This document shows, in pieces, positions 33,475-43,108 of a DNA stretch of 64,000 nucleotides. Under the pieces are notes generated by a model. It did no database searches. It was not told the DNA's origin and worked only from the letters and a program-made list of their open reading frames with translations. This stretch comes from Lactobacillus kefiranofaciens (GTDB taxonomy: Bacteria; Bacillota; Bacilli; Lactobacillales; Lactobacillaceae): assembly GCF_900103655.1 (NCBI RefSeq), contig NZ_FMXC01000002.1, forward strand, positions 62,001 to 126,000, given 5' to 3'. A program made the position numbers and the translations under genes. Positions within the stretch are counted from its first letter, which is position 1; each line of letters starts with the position of its first letter.

Positions 33475-34824
33475 ATGACCAAAGAAATCAACAATGATAC
33501 GATTGCTAAATTTGAAAATGATTTAGCCAAGCATCCCGCTTTTAACGTTGCTAGTCATGCAGCTCAAGAAAACGGCATCTTCAAAGCTAGCCAAAATTTA
33601 CAATCCAAGATTGACTTAGACCCAACTTTCTCAATCGAAATTGATACGGGTAAACCAGCTGATCAAAAACAATCTGGTCGTTGCTGGATGTTCAGTGCTT
33701 TGAACACCATGCGCCACCCACTACAAAAGAAATTTAAGTTAAAGGACTTTGAATTATCGCAAAACTACACTAACTTCTGGGACAAATTTGAAAAGTCTAA
33801 CTGGTTCTTCGAAAATGTGATCGGTTCCGCAGATAAGCCACTTGGCGACCGCAAGGTTTCCTTCTTATTTGCTACCCCACAACAAGACGGTGGTCAATGG
33901 GACATGCTTTGCGGCATTATTGAAAAGTACGGTATTGTACCCAAGAGCGTTTACCCAGAAACTGCTAACTCAAACAACTCAAGTGCTTTAAACGACACCT
34001 TAAACACTTTGCTTCGTAAAGATGGTCTTGAATTAAGAGACTTAGTTAATGCTGGCAAGTCAGAAGATGAAGTACAAGCTCGCAAGGAAGAAATGTTAAA
34101 CGATGTCTTCCGCGTTCTTTCAATCTCACTTGGTGTTCCACCTAAGAAATTCAATTTCGAATACCGTGATGATGACAAGAACTACCACATCGACAAGGAT
34201 ATTACTCCTAAGGAATTCTTTGACAAGTACGTTGGCATGGATCTTGAAAATCATATTTCAACAATTAATTCACCAACTGATGATAAGCCTTTCCACAAGG
34301 TCTTCTCAGTTGAATACCTAGGTAACGTTGAAGGCGGTCGTCAAGTTCGTCACTTGAACTTAAAGGTTGATGAAATGAAAGATTTGATCATCAAGCAATT
34401 AAAGAGCGGTGAAGTTGTTTGGTTCGGTTCAAACGTAGTCAAGGATTCTGAACGTCGCGCTGGTTTACTTGACACTAACCTTTACCGTCGTGATCAATTA
34501 TTTGATGTTGACTTCTCAATGTCTAAGGCTGATAAGCTTGACTCAGGCGAAAGCATGATGGACCACGCAATGGTTATTACTGGTGTTGACATCGTTGATG
34601 GCAAGCCAACTAAGTGGAAGATTGAAAACTCATGGGGTGAAAAGCCAGGCTTTAAAGGCTACTTCGTAATGAGTGATTCATGGTTTGACTCATTTGTTTA
34701 CCAAGCAGTTATTAACAAAGATATTTTGCCAGAAGATCTTAAGAAGGCTTACGACGAAGGCAAGGATAATCCTATTCAATTATTGCCATGGGATCCAATG
34801 GGTGCTTTAGCATTTAAGTATTAA
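33475..34824 (+). CDS. pepC: Aminopeptidase C (bleomycin hydrolase family)
   Basis: A 449-residue papain-like cysteine aminopeptidase. The nucleophile lies in DQKQSGRCWMFSALN (Cys70), the His in DHAMVITGVDIVDG, and the Asn in KIENSWGEK near the C-terminus. Self-compartmentalising hexamers trim casein-derived peptides in lactobacilli. AAAGGAGGA precedes the ATG. PepG/PepW paralogues exist in the genus, so the exact subtype is less sure than the family. Confidence 0.92.
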   Translation: MTKEINNDTIAKFENDLAKHPAFNVASHAAQENGIFKASQNLQSKIDLDPTFSIEIDTGKPADQKQSGRCWMFSALNTMRHPLQKKFKLKDFELSQNYTNFWDKFEKSNWFFENVIGSADKPLGDRKVSFLFATPQQDGGQWDMLCGIIEKYGIVPKSVYPETANSNNSSALNDTLNTLLRKDGLELRDLVNAGKSEDEVQARKEEMLNDVFRVLSISLGVPPKKFNFEYRDDDKNYHIDKDITPKEFFDKYVGMDLENHISTINSPTDDKPFHKVFSVEYLGNVEGGRQVRHLNLKVDEMKDLIIKQLKSGEVVWFGSNVVKDSERRAGLLDTNLYRRDQLFDVDFSMSKADKLDSGESMMDHAMVITGVDIVDGKPTKWKIENSWGEKPGFKGYFVMSDSWFDSFVYQAVINKDILPEDLKKAYDEGKDNPIQLLPWDPMGALAFKY

Positions 34825-34851
34825 TAATTAGATTTATTCCACATAATTAAC

Positions 34852-34884
34852 AGACTAGGAATGTTTGACACTCCTAGTCTTTTT
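34852..34884 (+). terminator. Terminator of pepC
   Basis: AGACTAGGA/TCCTAGTCT (9 pairs), 11-base loop, then TTTT. Confidence 0.85.
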
Positions 34885-34967
34885 CATGAAAAGGCAAAAA
34901 ATTTGCTAGCAATTTAGATTTATTTTAATATTATGTAAGTATTTACAAAAAATAAGGTAGTTAATTT

Positions 34968-35810
34968 ATGAATATACTTATTGCTTTAATTCCAGCACTT
35001 GGTTGGGGAATTTTTTCACTTATTGCTGGCAAAATTAAAAATAGTCATCCTGCTAATGAGTTAATGGGGTTAGGAACTGGGGCATTAATAATCGGTATTA
35101 TTACAGCTATCATTCATCCAACCAGTTCCAACATTACAATTTTTTCGTTATCACTAATTTCTGGAATGTTTTGTGCACTTGGACAATCTGGTCAATTCAT
35201 TTCAATGAGAAATATCGGTATCAGTAAAACGATGCCATTATCAACAGGTTTTCAACTGATCGGTAATACTTTAATTGGGGCAATAATTTTTGGAGAATGG
35301 ACTAGCAGCTCTCAATATTTAATTGGTACTTTAGCTTTAATCTTAATTATCGTTGGTGTTAGTTTGACCGCCATCAGCAAAGATAAAAGCGCCAAACTCA
35401 AAATGAGAGATATTATTCTATTGCTCTTCACATCAATTGGTTATTGGATTTATTCATCATTTCCAAAAGCTATCACAGCCGATGCACAGACCCTATTTTT
35501 ACCACAAATGATTGGTATCTTTATTGGTAGTATTATCTTTTTGTTAGTATCTCGCCAAACCAAGGTATTAAAAGAAAAAGCTACCTGGCTTAATATCTTT
35601 TCCGGTTTTTCATTTGGGATCGCCGCATTCGCATATATCTTTTCAGCTCAATTAAACGGCGTTATTACTGCTTTTATTTACAGTCAACTTTGCGTAATAA
35701 TTTCTACTTTAGGCGGTATTTTCTTTATCGGTGAAAATAAGACTAAATCCGAATTAATTGCAACCTTTGTTGGCCTAATCTTAATTATCATTGGTGCTGC
35801 TATTCAATGA
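34968..35810 (+). CDS. GRP family sugar transporter (GlcU-like)
   Basis: A 280-residue membrane protein with about ten helices in two similar halves, beginning MNILIALIPALGWGIFSLIA. The second half of the repeat has FGIAAFAYIFSAQLNGVITAF. It resembles the glucose/ribose uptake GRP family in the EamA superfamily, proton-coupled sugar carriers of Firmicutes. The actual sugar is unknown. A terminator follows 16 bases downstream. Confidence 0.8.
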   Translation: MNILIALIPALGWGIFSLIAGKIKNSHPANELMGLGTGALIIGIITAIIHPTSSNITIFSLSLISGMFCALGQSGQFISMRNIGISKTMPLSTGFQLIGNTLIGAIIFGEWTSSSQYLIGTLALILIIVGVSLTAISKDKSAKLKMRDIILLLFTSIGYWIYSSFPKAITADAQTLFLPQMIGIFIGSIIFLLVSRQTKVLKEKATWLNIFSGFSFGIAAFAYIFSAQLNGVITAFIYSQLCVIISTLGGIFFIGENKTKSELIATFVGLILIIIGAAIQ

Positions 35811-35826
35811 ATACTAAAAATTAATG

Positions 35827-35856
35827 AAAGACTTCAGATTTATTCTGAAGTCTTTT
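35827..35856 (+). terminator. Terminator of the GRP transporter
   Basis: AAGACTTCAGA/TCTGAAGTCTT (11 pairs), loop TTTAT, then TTTCTT. Confidence 0.88.
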
Positions 35857-35992
35857 CTTCATTTCCTGCCAGTATTCTCAATCTTATAATGTTTAAAAAA
35901 TTCCAAGTGCATATTCTTGCTTTATCCAAAAATGAAACATACAGTGAAAGCCTATTTATTAGAGATGATCATTTACCTAGGAGGTAATAAAC

Positions 35993-36401
35993 ATGACAGA
36001 TTATTCAAAGAGATAATTGAAAGCTTTAGACAGAATTTCTAAGAAGATTAGTGAACGCTGAAAGTCACTTAGCTAAAATTGAAGATTCAGTACCTGACAA
36101 GCGTCATCTCGTACCGCACAACATGAAACTATTAAGGACATCAAGTCTATTCTGAAACATGCTAGAAAAGTTGGTGAATATGACGCCAAGATTGATGCTA
36201 AGGCTGATGAAAAAGAATATGTTTGCGTTGAGGATGAAGAAGGTTGTCATTAAGGACCTTGAAAAAGAATTCAAGGAACTTGATGAAAGACTTGATAAGT
36301 TAAGTGATACTGATGGTTACGATATTAAGCGTTACCGTGAAGAACATCACTCACTTGAAAAGGCTAAGGAAGTTTTAGCAAAAGCTGGTAAATTAGAATA
36401 A
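35993..36401 (+). pseudogene. Decayed gene for a small coiled-coil protein
   Basis: AGGAGG precedes an ATG at 35993. The coding trail jumps frames: MTDYSKR, stop, LKALDRISKKISE; then AESHLAKIEDSVPDKRHL in the +1 frame; then TAQHETIKDIKSILKHARKV; then MKKVVIKDLEKEFKELDERL to KAGKLE and the stop at 36401. Joined, this is a single charged, heptad-like helical protein of about 130 residues broken by one stop and at least three frame changes. The intact 80-codon frame at 36159-36401 only covers its end and is not an independent gene. No family known to me. Confidence 0.75.
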
Positions 36402-36421
36402 TTTATTCATTTCATAATAAT

Positions 36422-36465
36422 AAAAGAGCGTAAGTAGATATTTTGATCTACCTACGCTCTTTTTG
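36422..36465. terminator. Bidirectional terminator
   Basis: AAAAGAGCGTA-GTAGAT pairs with ATCTAC-TACGCTCTTTT (one A-C mismatch), loop ATTTTG. It sits between the decayed gene (plus) and mgtA (minus). Confidence 0.88.
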
Positions 36466-36472
36466 CATTAAT

Positions 36473-39151
36473 TTAAATCAGATATTTTTCTGACTTCATG
36501 TACCATTTCTTAACTACTGTAGTTAAAGCAATGTACAAAACTAACAAGATAAAGACAACAGCTAAGAAATAAACTGGAATTGGGCCAAACTTCATCGCCT
36601 TAGCAATCGGTGTAATAAATGGTAAAGCTGTTCCGATTACTGCCATGCTAATGGTTGACCAAGTAACAATTGCCGTTGCATGTTGCTTAATAAAAGGTAC
36701 TCTTGGATCTCTTAAAGCATGGATCACCATTTCTTGTGTCCAAAGAGATTCAATAAACCAACCAGCACTAAAGACAAGACTAAACAATAATTTTTGTGAA
36801 GCTGTTGCTCCTGCATAACTGGTACCCACAACTTGTGGACAAACTACAAAAAATAGAATTGCAAAAGTCAAAATATCAAAAATCGATGAAGTCGGACCAA
36901 AGTAAAACATAAACTTAGGCAACTTCTTAGTACTCCACTTTCTTGGTTCTGAAAGATAATGACGATTCATTGTATCAAATGGAATTGATAAACAACTGGT
37001 TCCGTACATCAAATCGAGAATTAGTAATTGAATTGGCAACATTGGCAAAAATGGTAAAAATGAAGATGCTACTAAAATTGATAAAATATTACCAAAATTA
37101 GATGAAAGTGTAATCTTGATATACTTCATTGCATTACCAAATACTTGTCGACCAATTTGAACTGCTCTTTCCAAGATTCGTAAATCTTTATGAAGCAAAA
37201 TAATATCTGCAGATTTTTTAGCGATATCCACAGCCGTGTCCACAGAAATTGAAACATCGGCAGCCTTCATAGCTGGAGCATCATTAATACCATCACCCAT
37301 GTAAGCTACGGTGTGCCCATCTTCTCTCAATACTTTAATAATCTTGGCCTTTTGCTGTGGTGATAGCTTAACGAAAACATCGCATTCTTGCACTATCTTC
37401 TTTAATTCAGCTGTAGTTTTATTTTCAAGTTCTTTACCTTGGTATACTTTATCAATATTCAGACCTACTTGCGCACCAACATTTCTCGTTACAGCTTCAT
37501 TATCACCAGTCAGAATCTTAACTGTAATTCCATCTTGTTTTAAAGCATCCAATGCCTCCTTAGCACTATCCTTTGGTGGATCAAGGAATGCTAAAAATCC
37601 GGCGAGAATCAATTCTTTTTCATCGGCTACACTAAATTCACCAACAGGAGCTGGATTTTTCTTGTAAGCAAGCAAAATAACTCTAAGACCATCACGATTC
37701 ATTTCATCAATCTTGTCTAAAATCTCTTTTCGCTGCGCTTCATCTAACGGTTTGATCTCCCCATCCTTTTCTACTCTATTAGAACATGCCAACATTTCTT
37801 CCGCAGCACCCTTAGTTACTAATAGATGCTCATTTTTCTTATTTTTAACAACTACACTCATCCGCCGACGTTTAAAATCAAAAGGAATTTCATCAATTTT
37901 TTGATAATTTTGCTTAATATTGTTAGTGTCTAATTCATCATCAGCTACATCAATAATAGCCTTATCCATCAAATCTTTCATGCCTGTTTGATAGTAACTG
38001 TTTAAAAAAGATAATTCCAAGACCTTCGGTTTTTCTTCTAAATTCAAATTGTAGTGACGTTCAAGCACAACTTTATCTTGGGTTAATGTTCCCGTCTTAT
38101 CAGTACACAAAATATCAGCTGAACCAAAGTTTTGAATAGAACTCATTCTTTTAACGATCGTTTCATGCTTAGCCATCTCTACAGAGCCTTTAACTAGGTT
38201 ACTAGTAACAATCACTGGCAGCATTTCTGGCGTTAAACCAACTGCAGTTGCAATTGCAAAGATTAAAGCATTTAACCAATCACCCTTGGTCAATCCATTA
38301 ATTAAGAAAACTAATGGCGCAATCACCGCAGTCATCGTTAACAGAATTTTAGAGATATTTTTAATTCCAATATCAAATGTAGTTTCTTTGTTTTTATTTT
38401 TAGCTAAACTACGAGCTAAATTGCCAAAGACAGTTTGATCGCCTGTCGCAAAAACAACGCCCATCCCCGATCCAGAAACAATATTAGTTCCTTCATACAA
38501 AACATTAGGATAATCCAAGTAACTATCTTCATCTTCCGGTTTTTGATCGGCAATTTTTTCTACAGGATTAGATTCACCATTAAGTGAGCTAGCAGAACAG
38601 AATAAGTCCTTACTACGCAACAATAGTAAGTCTGCCGGTACTAAATCACCTGCAGTTAAATTAATAATATCGCCGACTACTACCCCTTTAGTTGGTAATT
38701 CCTGATCTTTCTCGTCTCTTCTAATATTGGTTGTTACTGAAACCATATTCAAAAGACTTTCGACAGCATCACTTGTTCTAACGTTTTGAACAAAACTAGT
38801 AATTCCTGAAATCAAAATCATGACCAACATAATAATCACTGTACTCAAATCTTTTTGATTAGTTGGTACGAAAACATAATCAGTGAAAAAAGATAGAGTT
38901 GCTAAAATTACTAGCACTCCAGTAAAAGGTGTCAAAAAGGCATCAGCTAAAAAATGTAATTTAGGATGGTGTTCTTTGTTAGACACTTCATTAAACCCAT
39001 CGCGTTCTAGCCTTTTACGCGCTTCACTAGCAGTTAAGCCATTAACAGAAGCTCCTAATTCTGTTAACACCTTACTTTTATCCTCTCTAGCAATCCGTTT
39101 AGCTAAAGTCGCATCTGTTACCACACGATCTTTAGAGTTGATTTTCAGCAT
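36473..39151 (-). CDS. mgtA: Magnesium-transporting P-type ATPase (MgtA type)
   Basis: A P3B-type ATPase of 892 residues. It has an N-terminal cation-ATPase domain (LGASVNGLTASEARKRLERD), TAGDLVPADLLL and SLNGESNPVEK in the actuator domain, DKTGTLTQDKV (phosphorylated Asp), KGAAEEMLACSNR (nucleotide domain), GDGINDAPAMKAADVSI, and ten membrane helices. The start at 39151 has GAGGGAGAG upstream; a longer frame to 39211 would run into the leader terminator. Expression is controlled by the Mg2+ riboswitch upstream. Confidence 0.95.
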   Translation of the reverse strand: MLKINSKDRVVTDATLAKRIAREDKSKVLTELGASVNGLTASEARKRLERDGFNEVSNKEHHPKLHFLADAFLTPFTGVLVILATLSFFTDYVFVPTNQKDLSTVIIMLVMILISGITSFVQNVRTSDAVESLLNMVSVTTNIRRDEKDQELPTKGVVVGDIINLTAGDLVPADLLLLRSKDLFCSASSLNGESNPVEKIADQKPEDEDSYLDYPNVLYEGTNIVSGSGMGVVFATGDQTVFGNLARSLAKNKNKETTFDIGIKNISKILLTMTAVIAPLVFLINGLTKGDWLNALIFAIATAVGLTPEMLPVIVTSNLVKGSVEMAKHETIVKRMSSIQNFGSADILCTDKTGTLTQDKVVLERHYNLNLEEKPKVLELSFLNSYYQTGMKDLMDKAIIDVADDELDTNNIKQNYQKIDEIPFDFKRRRMSVVVKNKKNEHLLVTKGAAEEMLACSNRVEKDGEIKPLDEAQRKEILDKIDEMNRDGLRVILLAYKKNPAPVGEFSVADEKELILAGFLAFLDPPKDSAKEALDALKQDGITVKILTGDNEAVTRNVGAQVGLNIDKVYQGKELENKTTAELKKIVQECDVFVKLSPQQKAKIIKVLREDGHTVAYMGDGINDAPAMKAADVSISVDTAVDIAKKSADIILLHKDLRILERAVQIGRQVFGNAMKYIKITLSSNFGNILSILVASSFLPFLPMLPIQLLILDLMYGTSCLSIPFDTMNRHYLSEPRKWSTKKLPKFMFYFGPTSSIFDILTFAILFFVVCPQVVGTSYAGATASQKLLFSLVFSAGWFIESLWTQEMVIHALRDPRVPFIKQHATAIVTWSTISMAVIGTALPFITPIAKAMKFGPIPVYFLAVVFILLVLYIALTTVVKKWYMKSEKYLI

Positions 39152-39186
39152 TCTAATCTCTCCCTCTAAAAAATCGGCAAACAAAC

Positions 39187-39218
39187 AAAAAGGCCAACGC
39201 AAAAACTGCATTGGTCTT
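39187..39218 (-). terminator. Riboswitch-controlled terminator before mgtA
   Basis: Minus strand ACCAATGC/GCGTTGGC stem around AGTTTTT, then five U residues, positioned between the M-box and the mgtA ribosome site. In the Mg2+-bound state this hairpin should form. Confidence 0.8.
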
Positions 39219-39224
39219 AATTAT

Positions 39225-39395
39225 CAAGCGATTTATACTCGTCGTTCAGTTTTAACACTACGTAACGTGAAGTCTGTTCAACTAGCTGACTGGGGAAAGC
39301 CTTAACTCGACAGTGCCTGTTTAACCCGTTGGCATCTCTGGATCTTGCTGGGCGTCAGCGTATATTTACGTAGGAGTCTCACCTAACAGTTCATT
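39225..39395 (-). promoter_or_regulatory. M-box (ykoK) magnesium riboswitch
   Basis: The minus strand has the M-box core GTTAGGTGAGACTCCTACG at its 5' end (39371-39389), then ATATACGCTGACGCCCAGCA, AGAGATGCCAACGGG and later GTGTTAAAACTGAACGACGA, closely following the Bacillus subtilis ykoK leader in order and sequence. It lies directly upstream of an MgtA-type transporter and a terminator, so high Mg2+ should switch mgtA off. Ends approximate. Confidence 0.93.
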
Positions 39396-39485
39396 TGCTT
39401 TAATTATTTTTAACAGTGCTAGGGTAAGACAAAAAAATATTCTAATCAACCTCTTTAAATAAATCTTTAAAATTTTAATGAAAAT

Positions 39486-39529
39486 AGCCCTATCCATCCC
39501 CGTATTTTAATGCGGGGATGGATAGGGCT
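39486..39529 (+). repeat. Long perfect hairpin at the left of the tnpB element
   Basis: AGCCCTATCCATCCCCG (39486-39502) is perfectly complementary to 39513-39529, with a 10-base A/T loop. A 17-pair stem of this GC content is unusual here. It could be the element's left-end hairpin or an insulating structure. Confidence 0.85.
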
Positions 39530-39530
39530 C

Positions 39531-39557
39531 AAGCTGACCCTTAGGTCAGCTTTTTTT
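39531..39557 (+). terminator. Plus-strand terminator upstream of tnpB
   Basis: AAGCTGACC/GGTCAGCTT with loop CTTA, then T7 (39551-39557). No plus-strand gene lies upstream, so it likely blocks transcription entering the element, as known for the 5' stem-loop of IS200. Confidence 0.8.
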
Positions 39558-39630
39558 ATTATAATTTAGAGACATATGTTCCCTTTTCCGGTAAAATATA
39601 AATATTAAATCTACGAGGAGGTGAAAAAAT

Positions 39631-40965
39631 ATGAAGAGAATGAGTAGTTTGGCTTGTCACTTCGGCATTAAGTTGCGCTTTTATCCTAGTTCCAAGCAGA
39701 AGAAAATCATTAAACTAAACTATGATGCTCAACGCTTTGTCTACAACTCTTATGTAGGACGCAATCGGACTAATTATCATGCTCGACGTTTCTTAGCTAG
39801 TAGACAGTGCCAAGCGATGCCTTTTGTTTTTTCTGCTCTTAATCGCTATGAAACTGAGTTGGCAGAAACAGTGGCCGCTAATAACGAACTGCTGGCTAAG
39901 CCCAAGAATATCCGCAATGCTTACAGCTTCTTACGCGTTAAAGAAATAGATAGTCTAGCGCTGGCTAATACAATTCAAAACTATCAGAAGGCTTGGAACA
40001 ACTACCGCAAGATCGGACATGGAATACCGACTTTCCACAAGAAACGCAGCGACTGGTCATACCAAACCAACTGCCAATATCCTAAGCAGCTTGAAGCTTA
40101 TCTTGATAATGGAACTGCTAAGTTTATCGATGACAAACACGTTAAATTGCCTAAGCTGGGCGTTGTCCGCATTGCTGGTTTTAGAAAATTAATTGAAGCT
40201 CGTTTGCTTAATCATATTCCGACAAGAATTGGCACAGTGACGATCAAAAAGACCGCTGATAATCAGTTTTATTTATCAATGCAGCTAGGCAGTGACGTAT
40301 CTTTTGTCAAAGACCTGCCTAAAACGCAGAGTCAAATTGGCATTGATCTCAATCTTGATAATTTCTTGACTGAATCAAACGGGGCTATGGTGGCTAATCC
40401 ACGCTTTTACCGCAAAGCTAAAAAGAAGCTTGCCCATGCTCAACGCGTGCTCTCTCGCAGACAAAGACGAGCTAAGCAAGAAGGACGCAATTTGCGGACG
40501 GCAAGCAACTATCAGAAGCAGCGTCTGGCAGTTGCTAAACTGCACGACAAGATTCGCAGACAGCGTGCAGACTTCTTACAAGCACTCTCAACTGCATTAA
40601 TCAAAAACCACGATTTAGTAGTTGCCGAGGAGTTAAGAAGCAAGAACTTGTTAAAGAATCATGCCTTATCTCAAGCAATCTCTGATGTTGGCTGGCGCAG
40701 CTTTCTTAACATGCTGGCTTATAAGGCTCAGCTATATGGCAAAGAATTCCTGACTATTGATCCTAAATACACCACTCAGCGCTGTCATGCTTGTGGCAGT
40801 ATTATGGGACAAAATGGCTATCGAAAATTAACGCTTAGGGATCGGGAATGGGCTTGCCCGATGTGTCATACACATCATATCCGCGATTGGAATGCGGCAA
40901 TAAACATCTTGGAAAAAGGACAAAAGCTGTGGCAGAATCCTAAGACAAAAGAAAAAGCAGCCTAA
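39631..40965 (+). CDS. tnpB: TnpB, RNA-guided transposon-encoded nuclease
   Basis: A 444-residue TnpB/OrfB with an apparently intact RuvC active site: first Asp in QIGIDLNLDNFL (about residue 237), Glu in LVVAEELRSKNLL (about 335), and last Asp in HHIRDWNAAINILE (about 427). The zinc ribbon is CHACGS and CPMCHT (about 389 and 415). The N-terminal part (IKLRFYPSSKQKKIIK) is the usual TnpB start. AGGAGGTG precedes the ATG. It ends a few bases before the structured tail. It probably cuts DNA next to a short target-adjacent motif, guided by the RNA from the element's right end. Confidence 0.93.
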   Translation: MKRMSSLACHFGIKLRFYPSSKQKKIIKLNYDAQRFVYNSYVGRNRTNYHARRFLASRQCQAMPFVFSALNRYETELAETVAANNELLAKPKNIRNAYSFLRVKEIDSLALANTIQNYQKAWNNYRKIGHGIPTFHKKRSDWSYQTNCQYPKQLEAYLDNGTAKFIDDKHVKLPKLGVVRIAGFRKLIEARLLNHIPTRIGTVTIKKTADNQFYLSMQLGSDVSFVKDLPKTQSQIGIDLNLDNFLTESNGAMVANPRFYRKAKKKLAHAQRVLSRRQRRAKQEGRNLRTASNYQKQRLAVAKLHDKIRRQRADFLQALSTALIKNHDLVVAEELRSKNLLKNHALSQAISDVGWRSFLNMLAYKAQLYGKEFLTIDPKYTTQRCHACGSIMGQNGYRKLTLRDREWACPMCHTHHIRDWNAAINILEKGQKLWQNPKTKEKAA

Positions 40966-41147
40966 AAAAATTGCAGTCCGTTAGCAACTCACGGACTTAA
41001 AAGGCTTTGGTAATTAGGCGACCTCTGCTGGCAATAGTTGCAAGATTATCGTCGGCAAGTCAAGCCTGTATCTAAGCAAGCTGGTGTTCTGGTTAGCGCA
41101 AGCTAACGAGCCACCAAGCCTCAGAATTTATTCTGGGGTAGTTGACG
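40966..41147 (+). ncRNA. Candidate omegaRNA (reRNA) scaffold
   Basis: Sequence directly after tnpB folds into successive hairpins: AGTCCGT/ACGGACT (40975-40997), GTTAGC-GCAA-GCTAAC with a GNRA loop (41092-41107), and CCTCAGAA/TTCTGGGG (41119-41138), followed by TAGTTGACG. Position and hairpin series match TnpB guide RNA scaffolds, which overlap or follow the gene's 3' end. The guide would be the next approximately 16-20 bases, i.e. host sequence from about 41148. The start and exact right end are inferred. Confidence 0.7.
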
Positions 41148-41153
41148 AAAACT

Positions 41154-41185
41154 AAAAAACTTATTCACATTATCTGTGAATAAGT
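41154..41185 (-). terminator. Terminator of the kinase gene
   Basis: Minus strand ACTTATTCACA/TGTGAATAAGT (11 pairs), loop GATAA, then six U residues. Confidence 0.88.
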
Positions 41186-41192
41186 CAATTTT

Positions 41193-42128
41193 TTACCAAA
41201 TATGAAGCAACCTGGTTGAATCTAGCTTGCTTAAATTGAATTGATGCACGTGCTGCTTAGGATTCTCTGGAAATTCCTTAACAAAATCAGCCACGTTGTA
41301 AAGGCCAGTTTCATATGTCCAAACTCCCTTTACTTTTCTAATCGGATCCAGCATCTCATTTCTAATTGGATATGCCGAAATCAAAAAATGCTTGTGGTGG
41401 AACTTGAAAACAAAGTACGGCAGCTTGAACTGCTTAACTGCTTCTTCTTCCGTTTTTGCAATGGAGACTACATTGCGATACGTGCCGTATTTTTCAGTAA
41501 ATTTATTATTAAATGAAAAATAGAAGTTCGAGATATGCACATGTGGAAAATCCTCTTCATCCACTTTATCCGGCACAGCAATCACATGTGAGTACCGATC
41601 TAAATTGCTTTCTCTTTGTGATAAAGCATGTTCCATCTGATTAGGAACGATCTTGTGAGCCCAATATGGCACCTCAGGATGTGCTTCATATGAATGATAC
41701 ATCTGCTTAACTACTTCTGGCTTCACCCAGTCATAGTGCATTCTGGTTTGATTGCGTTTAAGCAGACTCTCCAAAGTGTTGTGCTGCATTAAATCCACAA
41801 CAAAACACTCATAATGATACTTATCTACCCATGGCTTAAAATGTTCAATTGCACTAGGAACGATATGCGTCCCATCCACAATCACGGTTTCACCATGTTC
41901 CATTTTGTGTTCAACAAGGTGATCCACCATTTGCTCAGTACGCACGGTTACGTGCCGCGGAATAACTTGGTGTAAAACATCCGCGTCCTCTTGATAATAA
42001 ACTGTCAAATCTGCCAATAGTAGCCTAATATGATCACGGCTGATCGCATAAGGCGTTAAGTGATGGCGAGCAATAAAAGAAGATTTACCGGAGCCAGGTG
42101 CACCTCGTAATAAAAATAATTTACGCAT
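41193..42128 (-). CDS. AAA/P-loop kinase, polynucleotide-kinase-like
   Basis: A 311-residue protein. The N-terminal 150 residues form a T4-PNK-type P-loop kinase: Walker A GAPGSGKSS at residues 9-17, AISRDHIRLLLAD (lid/substrate side), VIVDGTHI as Walker B/DxT motif. The C-terminal 150 residues (HVHISNFYFSFNNKFTEKYG, then FKFHHKHFLISAYP) are of unknown fold. No ligase or phosphatase neighbour marks an RNA-repair operon, so the substrate is open. It is monocistronic with its own terminator. Confidence 0.75.
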   Translation of the reverse strand: MRKLFLLRGAPGSGKSSFIARHHLTPYAISRDHIRLLLADLTVYYQEDADVLHQVIPRHVTVRTEQMVDHLVEHKMEHGETVIVDGTHIVPSAIEHFKPWVDKYHYECFVVDLMQHNTLESLLKRNQTRMHYDWVKPEVVKQMYHSYEAHPEVPYWAHKIVPNQMEHALSQRESNLDRYSHVIAVPDKVDEEDFPHVHISNFYFSFNNKFTEKYGTYRNVVSIAKTEEEAVKQFKLPYFVFKFHHKHFLISAYPIRNEMLDPIRKVKGVWTYETGLYNVADFVKEFPENPKQHVHQFNLSKLDSTRLLHIW

Positions 42129-42209
42129 TGCCTACTACTCCAAACTAAATATACTTGAAATCATTATTGATTTTACCATAGATGGATAGAAATCATTATT
42201 AAGAGTATT

Positions 42210-42237
42210 AAAAAAATGCACCGTAGTGCATTTTTTT
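42210..42237 (-). terminator. Terminator overlapping the phosphoglycerate mutase stop
   Basis: Minus strand AAATGCAC/GTGCATTT with loop TACG, then a U run. Confidence 0.88.
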
Positions 42238-42913
42238 AGCGTAAAATTTCTTTTTTAATAATATTTAATTGATCATCCATTGTATAAACAATCGGTTCTG
42301 CATTCGGCACCTCAAGTTTTACAATATCATGGTCATTAATCTGCTCTAGTTTTTTGATTAAAGCACGCAAACTAGAGCCATGAGCCACGATCAATTGATC
42401 TTCACCGTTCATTAGCCTACTAGCAATATGGTCATGATAATATGGCATTAAGCGATTTTGCGTTTGATGCAAGCTTTCTGCACGCGGCATTAAATGTTGG
42501 TCACACAACTTGTAACGCCGATCAATAATGGGCGAGCCTTGTGCGGGTGGCACCGAATCAAAACCCCGCCGCCACAGTAAGACTTGTTCTACACCAAAGA
42601 CTTTGCGCGAGATATCTTTGTTAAGACCTCTAAGAGCACCATAGTGACGTTCATTCAGCCGCCATGTCTTAGTCATCGGCAGCCATAATAAATTGCAGGT
42701 CTCGGCAACAATATTAGCCGTAACAATAGCCCGTGACAAAACGGAAGTATGGATATGCGTAGGAGCAAAATCTGAGATAGTATTAATCAATTCACCCGCT
42801 TGTCTGGCCTGCTCTTCACCTTTTTTAGTTAATGGAACATCATTCCAGCCTGTATAAACGTTGGCGGCATTGGCTACACTTTCGCCATGCCGAACTAATA
42901 CTAATTTTGCCAT
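42236..42913 (-). CDS. Phosphoglycerate mutase-like protein (2,3-BPG-dependent family)
   Basis: A 225-residue histidine-phosphatase-fold protein. The catalytic His lies in LVLVRHGESVANAANVYTGW (His9), ERHYGALRGLNK is the dPGM substrate motif, and the second His is in LIVAHGSSLRAL (about 181). RRGFDSVPPAQGSP diverges from the usual RRSYDxPPP. It looks like a second, divergent copy rather than the housekeeping glycolytic enzyme, so activity may be altered. It is followed (upstream in the genome) by a small membrane gene. Confidence 0.8.
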   Translation of the reverse strand: MAKLVLVRHGESVANAANVYTGWNDVPLTKKGEEQARQAGELINTISDFAPTHIHTSVLSRAIVTANIVAETCNLLWLPMTKTWRLNERHYGALRGLNKDISRKVFGVEQVLLWRRGFDSVPPAQGSPIIDRRYKLCDQHLMPRAESLHQTQNRLMPYYHDHIASRLMNGEDQLIVAHGSSLRALIKKLEQINDHDIVKLEVPNAEPIVYTMDDQLNIIKKEILR

Positions 42914-42925
42914 TCTAAGATTCCT

Positions 42926-43108
42926 TTATTTGATTAAACTTCTGACAATCATTACAATTCCGCCAATAGTAAAAATAATACCCAAAATCATAAAGGCTGC
43001 AATGCCAAACTTATTATTGGGTTGGTGGCGCCTGTTAAAAGCATAGGACATATCATAAATTCCCATGATTAAAACGATTACTGCTGTAAAAATATTAACA
43101 TTAAACAT
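42926..43108 (-). CDS. Small two-helix membrane protein
   Basis: A 60-residue protein with two membrane helices (about residues 3-20 and 36-57) joined by a basic loop (NRRHQPNNKF). It has GGTGAAAA before the ATG and lies 8 bases after the CDF gene and 12 before the mutase-like gene, so all three are likely one transcript. No family recognised. Confidence 0.75.
   Translation of the reverse strand: MFNVNIFTAVIVLIMGIYDMSYAFNRRHQPNNKFGIAAFMILGIIFTIGGIVMIVRSLIK

What the first reader, a model, noticed from the sequence alone, without database searches (positions are those of the whole stretch)
39470..41185. Stand-alone TnpB with a likely omegaRNA between the Mg2+ transporter and a kinase gene
Seen: an intact RuvC triad (GIDLN, VAEEL, RDWNAA), a complete zinc ribbon and a downstream series of hairpins (one with a GCAA tetraloop) immediately after the stop. 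Known: TnpB of IS200/IS605 elements is an RNA-guided nuclease using RNA from the right end. Inference: the guide would start near 41148 and read the host sequence leading into the kinase-gene terminator. There is no tnpA, so transposition would need help in trans.
Basis: partly seen in the sequence, partly recalled or inferred. Interest (0 to 1): 0.6.

Follow-up and report, generated by a model that had tools for sequence, protein, structure and literature searches.

The report
Transposase-less TnpB jumping element, Lactobacillus
This is a small mobile DNA element in a Lactobacillus genome that carries an intact RNA-guided DNA-cutting gene and its likely guide RNA but has no transposase of its own, a known kind of element whose exact ends, target motif and relationship to complete sister copies could be fixed here.

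Summary
Window 39631-40965 encodes an intact 444-aa TnpB, related to ISDra2 TnpB (PDB 8h1j, E 2.7e-41), followed by a conserved, structured right end. It belongs to the IS200/IS605 family; an annotated ISLjo5-family element has the same ends and target. "Stand-alone" needs a correction. This is the tnpA-less form of a family that also has tnpA-plus copies with the same ends; its own genome holds family tnpA fragments cut by contig ends. Seven complete tnpA-less copies share one homologous 5' cassette but do not group on the tnpB tree. In one genome two copies have identical cassettes (0/130 differences) but different tnpB (83/1513), and one of those tnpB genes nearly matches a tnpA-plus copy (11/1513), so cassettes probably recombine. 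Two oddities of this copy: its left-end hairpin is fully paired, where 20 of 23 left ends have a mismatched block, and guide bases 13-20 fall in a host terminator stem. No expression or cleavage data. New member of a known kind.

The parts
39474..39478 (+). TTTAA target pentanucleotide, predicted TAM
   Evidence: TTTAA precedes the left end in 14 of 14 BLAST-anchored left ends printed; gap-free empty-site alignments of a sister copy place the following T inside the element
39479..41146 (+). IS200/IS605 element, tnpA-less isoform, ISLjo5-like, 1668 bp
39486..39529 (+). left-end palindrome, fully paired in this copy (16 of 16 pairs); mismatched block in 20 of 23 left ends compared
   Evidence: position
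39531..39557 (+). intrinsic-terminator-like hairpin plus T-run, part of the 5' cassette shared by tnpA-less copies
39569..39597 (+). promoter-like hexamers (GAGACA-17-TAAAAT, 9 of 12); weak evidence
   Evidence: 8 sites found in the region against 4.0 +/- 1.8 in shuffles
39631..40965 (+). tnpB, 444 aa, intact RuvC triad and zinc ribbon
40966..41146 (+). right end and predicted omegaRNA scaffold (181 nt, 8 helices, with compensatory changes)
41118..41138 (+). terminal right-end hairpin (also the expected TnpA recognition hairpin)
41147..41166 (+). predicted guide, first 20 nt, host DNA
   Evidence: junction fixed; guide role inferred from ISDra2
41154..41194 (.). bidirectional intrinsic terminator of the convergent kinase-like gene; overlaps the guide
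   Evidence: similar hairpin next to the same gene in L048 and L056

Best explanation
The feature is a complete, probably nuclease-competent, tnpA-less member of the IS200/IS605 family, in an ISLjo5-like Lactobacillus lineage. Shown by sequence: both ends, the TTTAA target, an intact TnpB under purifying selection, and a structured right end with compensatory changes. Inferred from characterised TnpBs: TnpB binds RNA from its own 3' end, takes the host sequence from 41147 onward as guide, and cuts DNA that carries TTTAA next to that sequence. In the genome as held no such site was found, but excision of the element would create one, so the nuclease would act on the empty donor site and favour copying the element back. 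Excision itself would need TnpA from a sister copy acting on the shared ends.
For: Ends and target: 15 of 15 BLAST-anchored right ends printed finish GTTGAC and diverge directly after; 14 of 14 left ends follow TTTAA. The joined flanks of the G020 copy align without a gap at the junction to 9 of 9 homologous loci examined (L130-L138; 28 of 75 genomes had some match). TnpB resembles ISDra2 TnpB (8h1j, E 2.7e-41) with the catalytic residues aligned. Pairwise dN/dS of the window copy is 0.066-0.092 against 13 copies, with dS 0.82-1.11; at codons identical in 12 other in-group copies it has 22 synonymous and 2 nonsynonymous changes. Right-end fold: 97.0% of cells paired over 18 distinct sequences; 37 cells changed on both sides against 12.4 +/- 3.1 in shuffles (0 of 500 as high), at most 9 when the partner is slid. 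Trans supply: a tnpA of this family lies beside a matching left end at G000:C36, 105 aa visible, with a 28-aa fragment at C82. TTTAA plus 16 guide bases, up to 3 mismatches, finds in the own genome only its own right-end junction (2 mismatches, both in the motif) and one 3-mismatch site.
Against: No expression, processing or cleavage data. Only one genome of the species is held, so the empty site of this very insertion was not seen. Both tnpA fragments in the own genome are cut by contig ends, so an intact TnpA there is unproven. The left-end hairpin is fully paired, unlike 20 of 23 left ends, which may impair TnpA recognition. Folded together with scaffold and terminator, guide bases 13-20 are predicted paired in the terminator stem (unpaired probability 0.12 at base 13, then at most 0.01), and bases 4-7 pair within the rest of the transcript (0.01-0.07; still 0.10-0.19 with the guide cut at 16, 20 or 24 nt); either could weaken targeting. 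Two of the five covariation measures were not exceptional (21 of 500 and 150 of 500 shuffles reach them). mgtA was not found in the stretch held beside the kinase gene in 19 of 19 relatives' loci, so the two flanks may not derive from one original insertion, in which case the guide would match no donor site.
Confidence: 0.85

Rival explanations
1. A locked relic: TnpB and RNA are intact but this copy can no longer move, because its left-end hairpin became a perfect palindrome and tnpA is gone; TnpB persists from recent constraint or by serving other copies.
For: Fully paired left arm in the window and in L050, nearly so in L047, against a mismatched block in the other 20 of 23 left ends, the diverged L053, L101 and L141 included; no tnpA in the element.
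Against: L050 has the same closed hairpin in a complete tnpA-plus element; the window TnpB is under constraint. That TnpA needs an unpaired block is recalled from IS608/ISDra2 work, not tested.
Confidence: 0.3
2. An element at a rearrangement junction: left and right halves come from two insertions joined by recombination between copies, so TTTAA and guide never belonged to one donor site and the RNP has no natural target.
For: In 19 of 19 relatives' loci with the kinase gene no mgtA was found in the stretch held beside it (mostly about 1.5 kb, only about 80 bases in L048); in L060 and L061 mgtA lies beside other genes; tnpA-less and tnpA-plus copies look recombined.
Against: pepC, the kinase gene's neighbour in other species, still lies 6.4 kb from it on the same contig, so a simple gain of genes between them explains the order as well.
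Confidence: 0.2
3. A nuclease-dead TnpB-derived regulator (TldR-like) using its guide to repress a host gene.
For: TnpB-derived regulators exist (TldR, seen only as a search listing with the start of an abstract).
Against: RuvC residues intact; the guide has no second match with TTTAA within 2 mismatches in the own genome; element ends intact.
Confidence: 0.03

Closest known systems
ISLjo5-family element of Lactobacillus johnsonii (NZ_CP040855.1, L141)
   Same: same TTTAA target, same left-end core, right end ...GGGGTAGTTGAC, tnpB of like length
   Different: carries tnpA divergent from tnpB; 74.7% DNA identity over 75% of the query
ISDra2 of Deinococcus radiodurans (TnpB 8h1j)
   Same: TnpB family, RuvC triad, right-end RNA; right end TTGAC (the ISDra2 end is recalled)
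   Different: TAM TTGAT (PMC8612924, passages including the abstract) against TTTAA here; ISDra2 carries tnpA (recalled)
IS1341 group (tnpB only between IS ends)
   Same: tnpB alone between left and right ends; the cassette interior (39531-39611) is left uncovered in the BLAST matches to tnpA-plus copies and shares no exact match over 11 nt with their tnpA region, so it would pass the 20-bp rule of PMC9956272 (passages)
   Different: ends and tnpB are shared with IS605-type copies of the same genus, so here it is an isoform, not a separate lineage
IS605 elements and PATE-like sequence of Halanaerobium hydrogeniformans (PMC7290912, passages)
   Same: many copies, a single intact tnpA, proposed trans mobilisation, an ends-only derivative
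   Different: those are described as decayed copies; here tnpA is cleanly replaced by a shared cassette
SisTnpB7 of Sulfolobus islandicus (PMC11043419, passages)
   Same: functional TAM TTTAA; guide starts directly after the conserved right-end bases
   Different: archaeal; right end UUCAC rather than UUGAC

Membership tests
TnpB RNA-guided nuclease | OrfB_IS605 / TNB domains, RuvC D-E-D, zinc ribbon | tested here: met
TnpB RNA-guided nuclease | guided double-strand cleavage next to a TAM | not testable with these tools
   needs an assay
TnpB RNA-guided nuclease | omegaRNA from the right end | tested here: inconclusive
   conserved fold with compensatory changes; no transcript data; no Rfam family matched
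IS200/IS605 family | insertion 3' of a fixed tetra/pentanucleotide without target duplication | tested here: met
   TTTAA in 14 of 14 left ends; gap-free empty-site alignments in 9 of 9 loci for a sister copy, not for the window copy itself
IS200/IS605 family | subterminal hairpins at both ends | tested here: met
IS200/IS605 family | Y1 HUH TnpA in the element | tested here: not met
   absent in the window copy; present in sister copies sharing both ends. Filed as a non-autonomous isoform, not as an autonomous member
IS1341 group | tnpB only between IS ends, no tnpA-derived sequence over 20 bp | tested here: met
   longest exact match 11 nt; no BLAST match over the cassette interior in tnpA-plus copies
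IS1341 group | a lineage separate from IS605 | tested here: not met
   tnpA-less copies need at least 4 label changes on the tnpB tree; whether the group requires this is itself open in print (PMC9956272, passages)
TldR | loss of RuvC catalytic residues | tested here: not met
   the defining feature is recalled

The most novel reading that the evidence does not exclude
The tnpA-less form is not decay. It is an exchangeable 5' cassette (left end, terminator, promoter) that repeatedly replaces left-end-plus-tnpA on the same tnpB/omegaRNA module by recombination between resident copies, and such copies move in trans. IS1341-type and IS605-type elements would then be interconvertible states of one population, and TnpB-only copies a stable life style selected for the nuclease.
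Probability: 0.45. Interest if true: 0.5.

Novelty: new member of a known kind. Interest (0 to 1): 0.32.

Why it matters
Many genomic tnpB copies have no transposase beside them (recalled; in this genome 14 TnpB matches over cut-off against 2 Y1 transposase matches), and it is stated in print to be unclear whether tnpB-only (IS1341) elements are autonomous or decay copies (PMC9956272, passages). Trans mobilisation, cassette exchange and the benefit of TnpB to a non-autonomous copy could be tested there. It also adds a predicted TTTAA-TAM TnpB with a mapped right-end scaffold of 181 nt.

Tried and rejected
Structure: the AlphaFold2 model from a 4-sequence alignment was poor (mean pLDDT 44.7, pTM 0.24). 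It was not used and no fold search was run. Rfam at E up to 1 gave no omegaRNA family over 38000-43000; Ref1C and STnc430, which overlap the flanks or the 5' part, and STnc150 lie far below their gathering scores and are treated as chance. No relative was found in phage records by distant blastn or in viral contigs by peptide patterns. The L092 empty-site alignments (3 of 3 shown) had gaps around the junction and are inconclusive; the L049 set carried the proof. The join with the T left outside the element was not run as an alignment; it would add one base at the junction. The empty site of the window insertion was looked for beside the kinase gene: 19 loci compared, of which 6 were read at the junction, and the intergenic sequence was too different to read an empty site. 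A nuclease-dead regulator was considered and rejected on the intact triad. Domestication could not be tested with one genome per species. A paper search for 'transposase in trans' with TnpB gave none.

Rows dropped before counts. RNA alignment A1 uses 20 of 24 right ends listed (L097 and L098 dropped for N, L104 and L105 because contig ends cut them). Most rows of A1 were chosen by a right-end motif, so conservation of GTTGAC rests, which was anchored by BLAST. The dN/dS range leaves out L053 and L101 (dS saturated) and L093 (TnpB broken); one search leaves out L098 (N) as well. The tree has 18 rows, without L047 and L099. The pair counts use the 7 complete tnpA-less copies; L099 is cut by a contig end. 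L051 and L100 share one insertion site in two species and are not independent insertions.

Full report
What was checked. The ORF at 39631-40965 is an intact TnpB. RuvC residues D239, E333 and D419 and the zinc ribbon at 385-412 (positions) align with ISDra2 TnpB, PDB 8h1j, E 2.7e-41. The 181 nt after the stop fold better than all 200 shuffles.

Ends. The window element hits other copies in the genus (16 of 75 genomes, the own one included, at E <= 1e-10). Outside Lactobacillus none of 16 genomes of other genera matched; plasmid records of other Lactobacillaceae genera match at 65-67% over about 40% of the element among the rows listed. Anchored by BLAST, 15 of 15 right ends printed finish GTTGAC and then diverge, and 14 of 14 left ends follow TTTAA. 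The base after TTTAA is usually T, so its owner was tested. The joined flanks of the G020 copy, which lies in what reads as a HAD-family gene, align without a gap to 9 of 9 homologous loci examined when that T is counted to the element; the other join would carry one extra base. The same test on a second copy (L092) was inconclusive. Hence element 39479-41146, target TTTAA 39474-39478, guide from 41147 (length). An annotated ISLjo5-family copy in L. johnsonii has the same target and ends.

Right-end RNA. Over 18 distinct right ends the 51-pair consensus is 97.0% paired, with 37 cells changed on both sides against 12.4 +/- 3.1 in shuffles and at most 9 in slid controls. Seven of the nine pairs with double changes lie in internal helices 3-5, away from the terminal hairpin that also serves as a transposon end. 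This favours an RNA function but does not prove a transcript. Two measures are weaker: the number of pairs with double changes was reached by 21 of 500 shuffles and the number of pair types by 150 of 500.

Two isoforms. Ten copies of 2.05-2.11 kb carry tnpA divergent from tnpB: seven tagged by a TnpA motif, and L053, L096 and L101 by the TnpA matches. Seven copies of 1.65-1.70 kb lack it and share one homologous 5' cassette: left end, a terminator-like hairpin and a promoter-like stretch; an eighth, L099, is cut by a contig end. The cassette interior is left uncovered by the BLAST matches to tnpA-plus copies and shares no exact match over 11 nt with their tnpA region. The label needs 4 changes on the tnpB tree, and starred branches force 4; 63 of 500 label shuffles need as few for the tnpA-less rows, so the label is not clearly clustered. 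In genome G045, copies L094 and L095 have 0 of 130 differences in the cassette but 83 of 1513 from tnpB to the right end, while L094 differs from the tnpA-plus copy L096 at 11 of 1513. Exchange of cassettes by recombination explains this most simply; repeated independent loss leaving the same cassette is less likely. No formal recombination test was run. A 236-bp ends-only copy that keeps the right-end scaffold is in G007 (L047).

TnpA in trans. Of 13 genomes given, 11 have a TnpA match at E <= 1e-10; G007 and G023 have none (G023 is 57% complete). G007 holds two complete tnpA-less copies, so either TnpA was lost there or its assembly lacks it; this is a point against a resident helper in every host. 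In the own genome the family TnpA is visible only as fragments at contig starts C36 (105 aa) and C82 (28 aa), each beside a matching left end.

Selection. Pairwise dN/dS of the window TnpB is 0.066-0.092 against 13 copies. At codons identical in 12 other in-group copies it has 22 synonymous and 2 nonsynonymous changes; four other copies treated alike give similar ratios. Both measures are approximate, since dS is near 1 and such codons are biased to constraint.

Peculiarities of this copy. Its left-end hairpin is perfectly paired, as in L050 and nearly in L047, while the other 20 of 23 left ends compared, the diverged L053, L101 and L141 included, have a mismatched block. This looks like a template-switch correction of a quasi-palindrome and may hinder TnpA (inference). 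The guide enters the convergent gene's terminator: with the terminator transcribed, bases 13-20 are predicted paired in its stem, and bases 4-7 are paired with or without it. The own genome holds no match to TTTAA plus 16 guide bases within 2 mismatches other than the element's own junction.

Mechanism. Shown: ends, target, intact constrained gene, structured right end, sister copies. Inferred from ISDra2 (PMC8612924, passages including the abstract) and from the report that TnpB processes its own mRNA (PMC10278001, abstract and one section): TnpB would cut the empty donor site at TTTAA plus guide and so favour retention of the element.

Verdict. A well-defined but ordinary kind of element. 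The interesting part is the apparent cassette exchange between tnpA-plus and tnpA-less copies, which bears on the open question of where tnpB-only elements come from (PMC9956272, abstract and passages).

Noticed in passing
window 39230-39397: M-box magnesium riboswitch (129.2 bits, gathering 44) upstream of the Mg-translocating P-type ATPase 36473-39211.
   Followed up: partly
own genome G000: 15 matches to the TnpB zinc-ribbon family, 14 over cut-off, but only 2 to the Y1 transposase family (a third, 28-aa TnpA fragment at C82): many TnpB copies here seem to have no tnpA of their own, contig breaks aside.
   Followed up: no
window 39486-39529; L050; L047: Left-end quasi-palindrome closed to a perfect or near-perfect palindrome in 3 of 23 left ends, from three genomes, which suggests recurrent template-switch correction.
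   Followed up: partly
L059 (G008), beside the kinase gene: A left-end-like relic of this element family lies next to the orthologous kinase gene in another species.
   Followed up: no
window 33475-41192: pepC and the kinase gene are neighbours in L058 and, read from the sequence, in L057 and L020; here a transporter-like gene, mgtA and the TnpB element lie between them.
   Followed up: partly
   Followed up: no
L051 (G008) and L100 (G078): A tnpA-plus copy sits at the same site in two species, with identical sequence in the flanking bases printed.
   Followed up: no
G007:C10:329-734: M-box matches directly abut sequence from the far side of mgtA, as if mgtA had been deleted between them.
   Followed up: no
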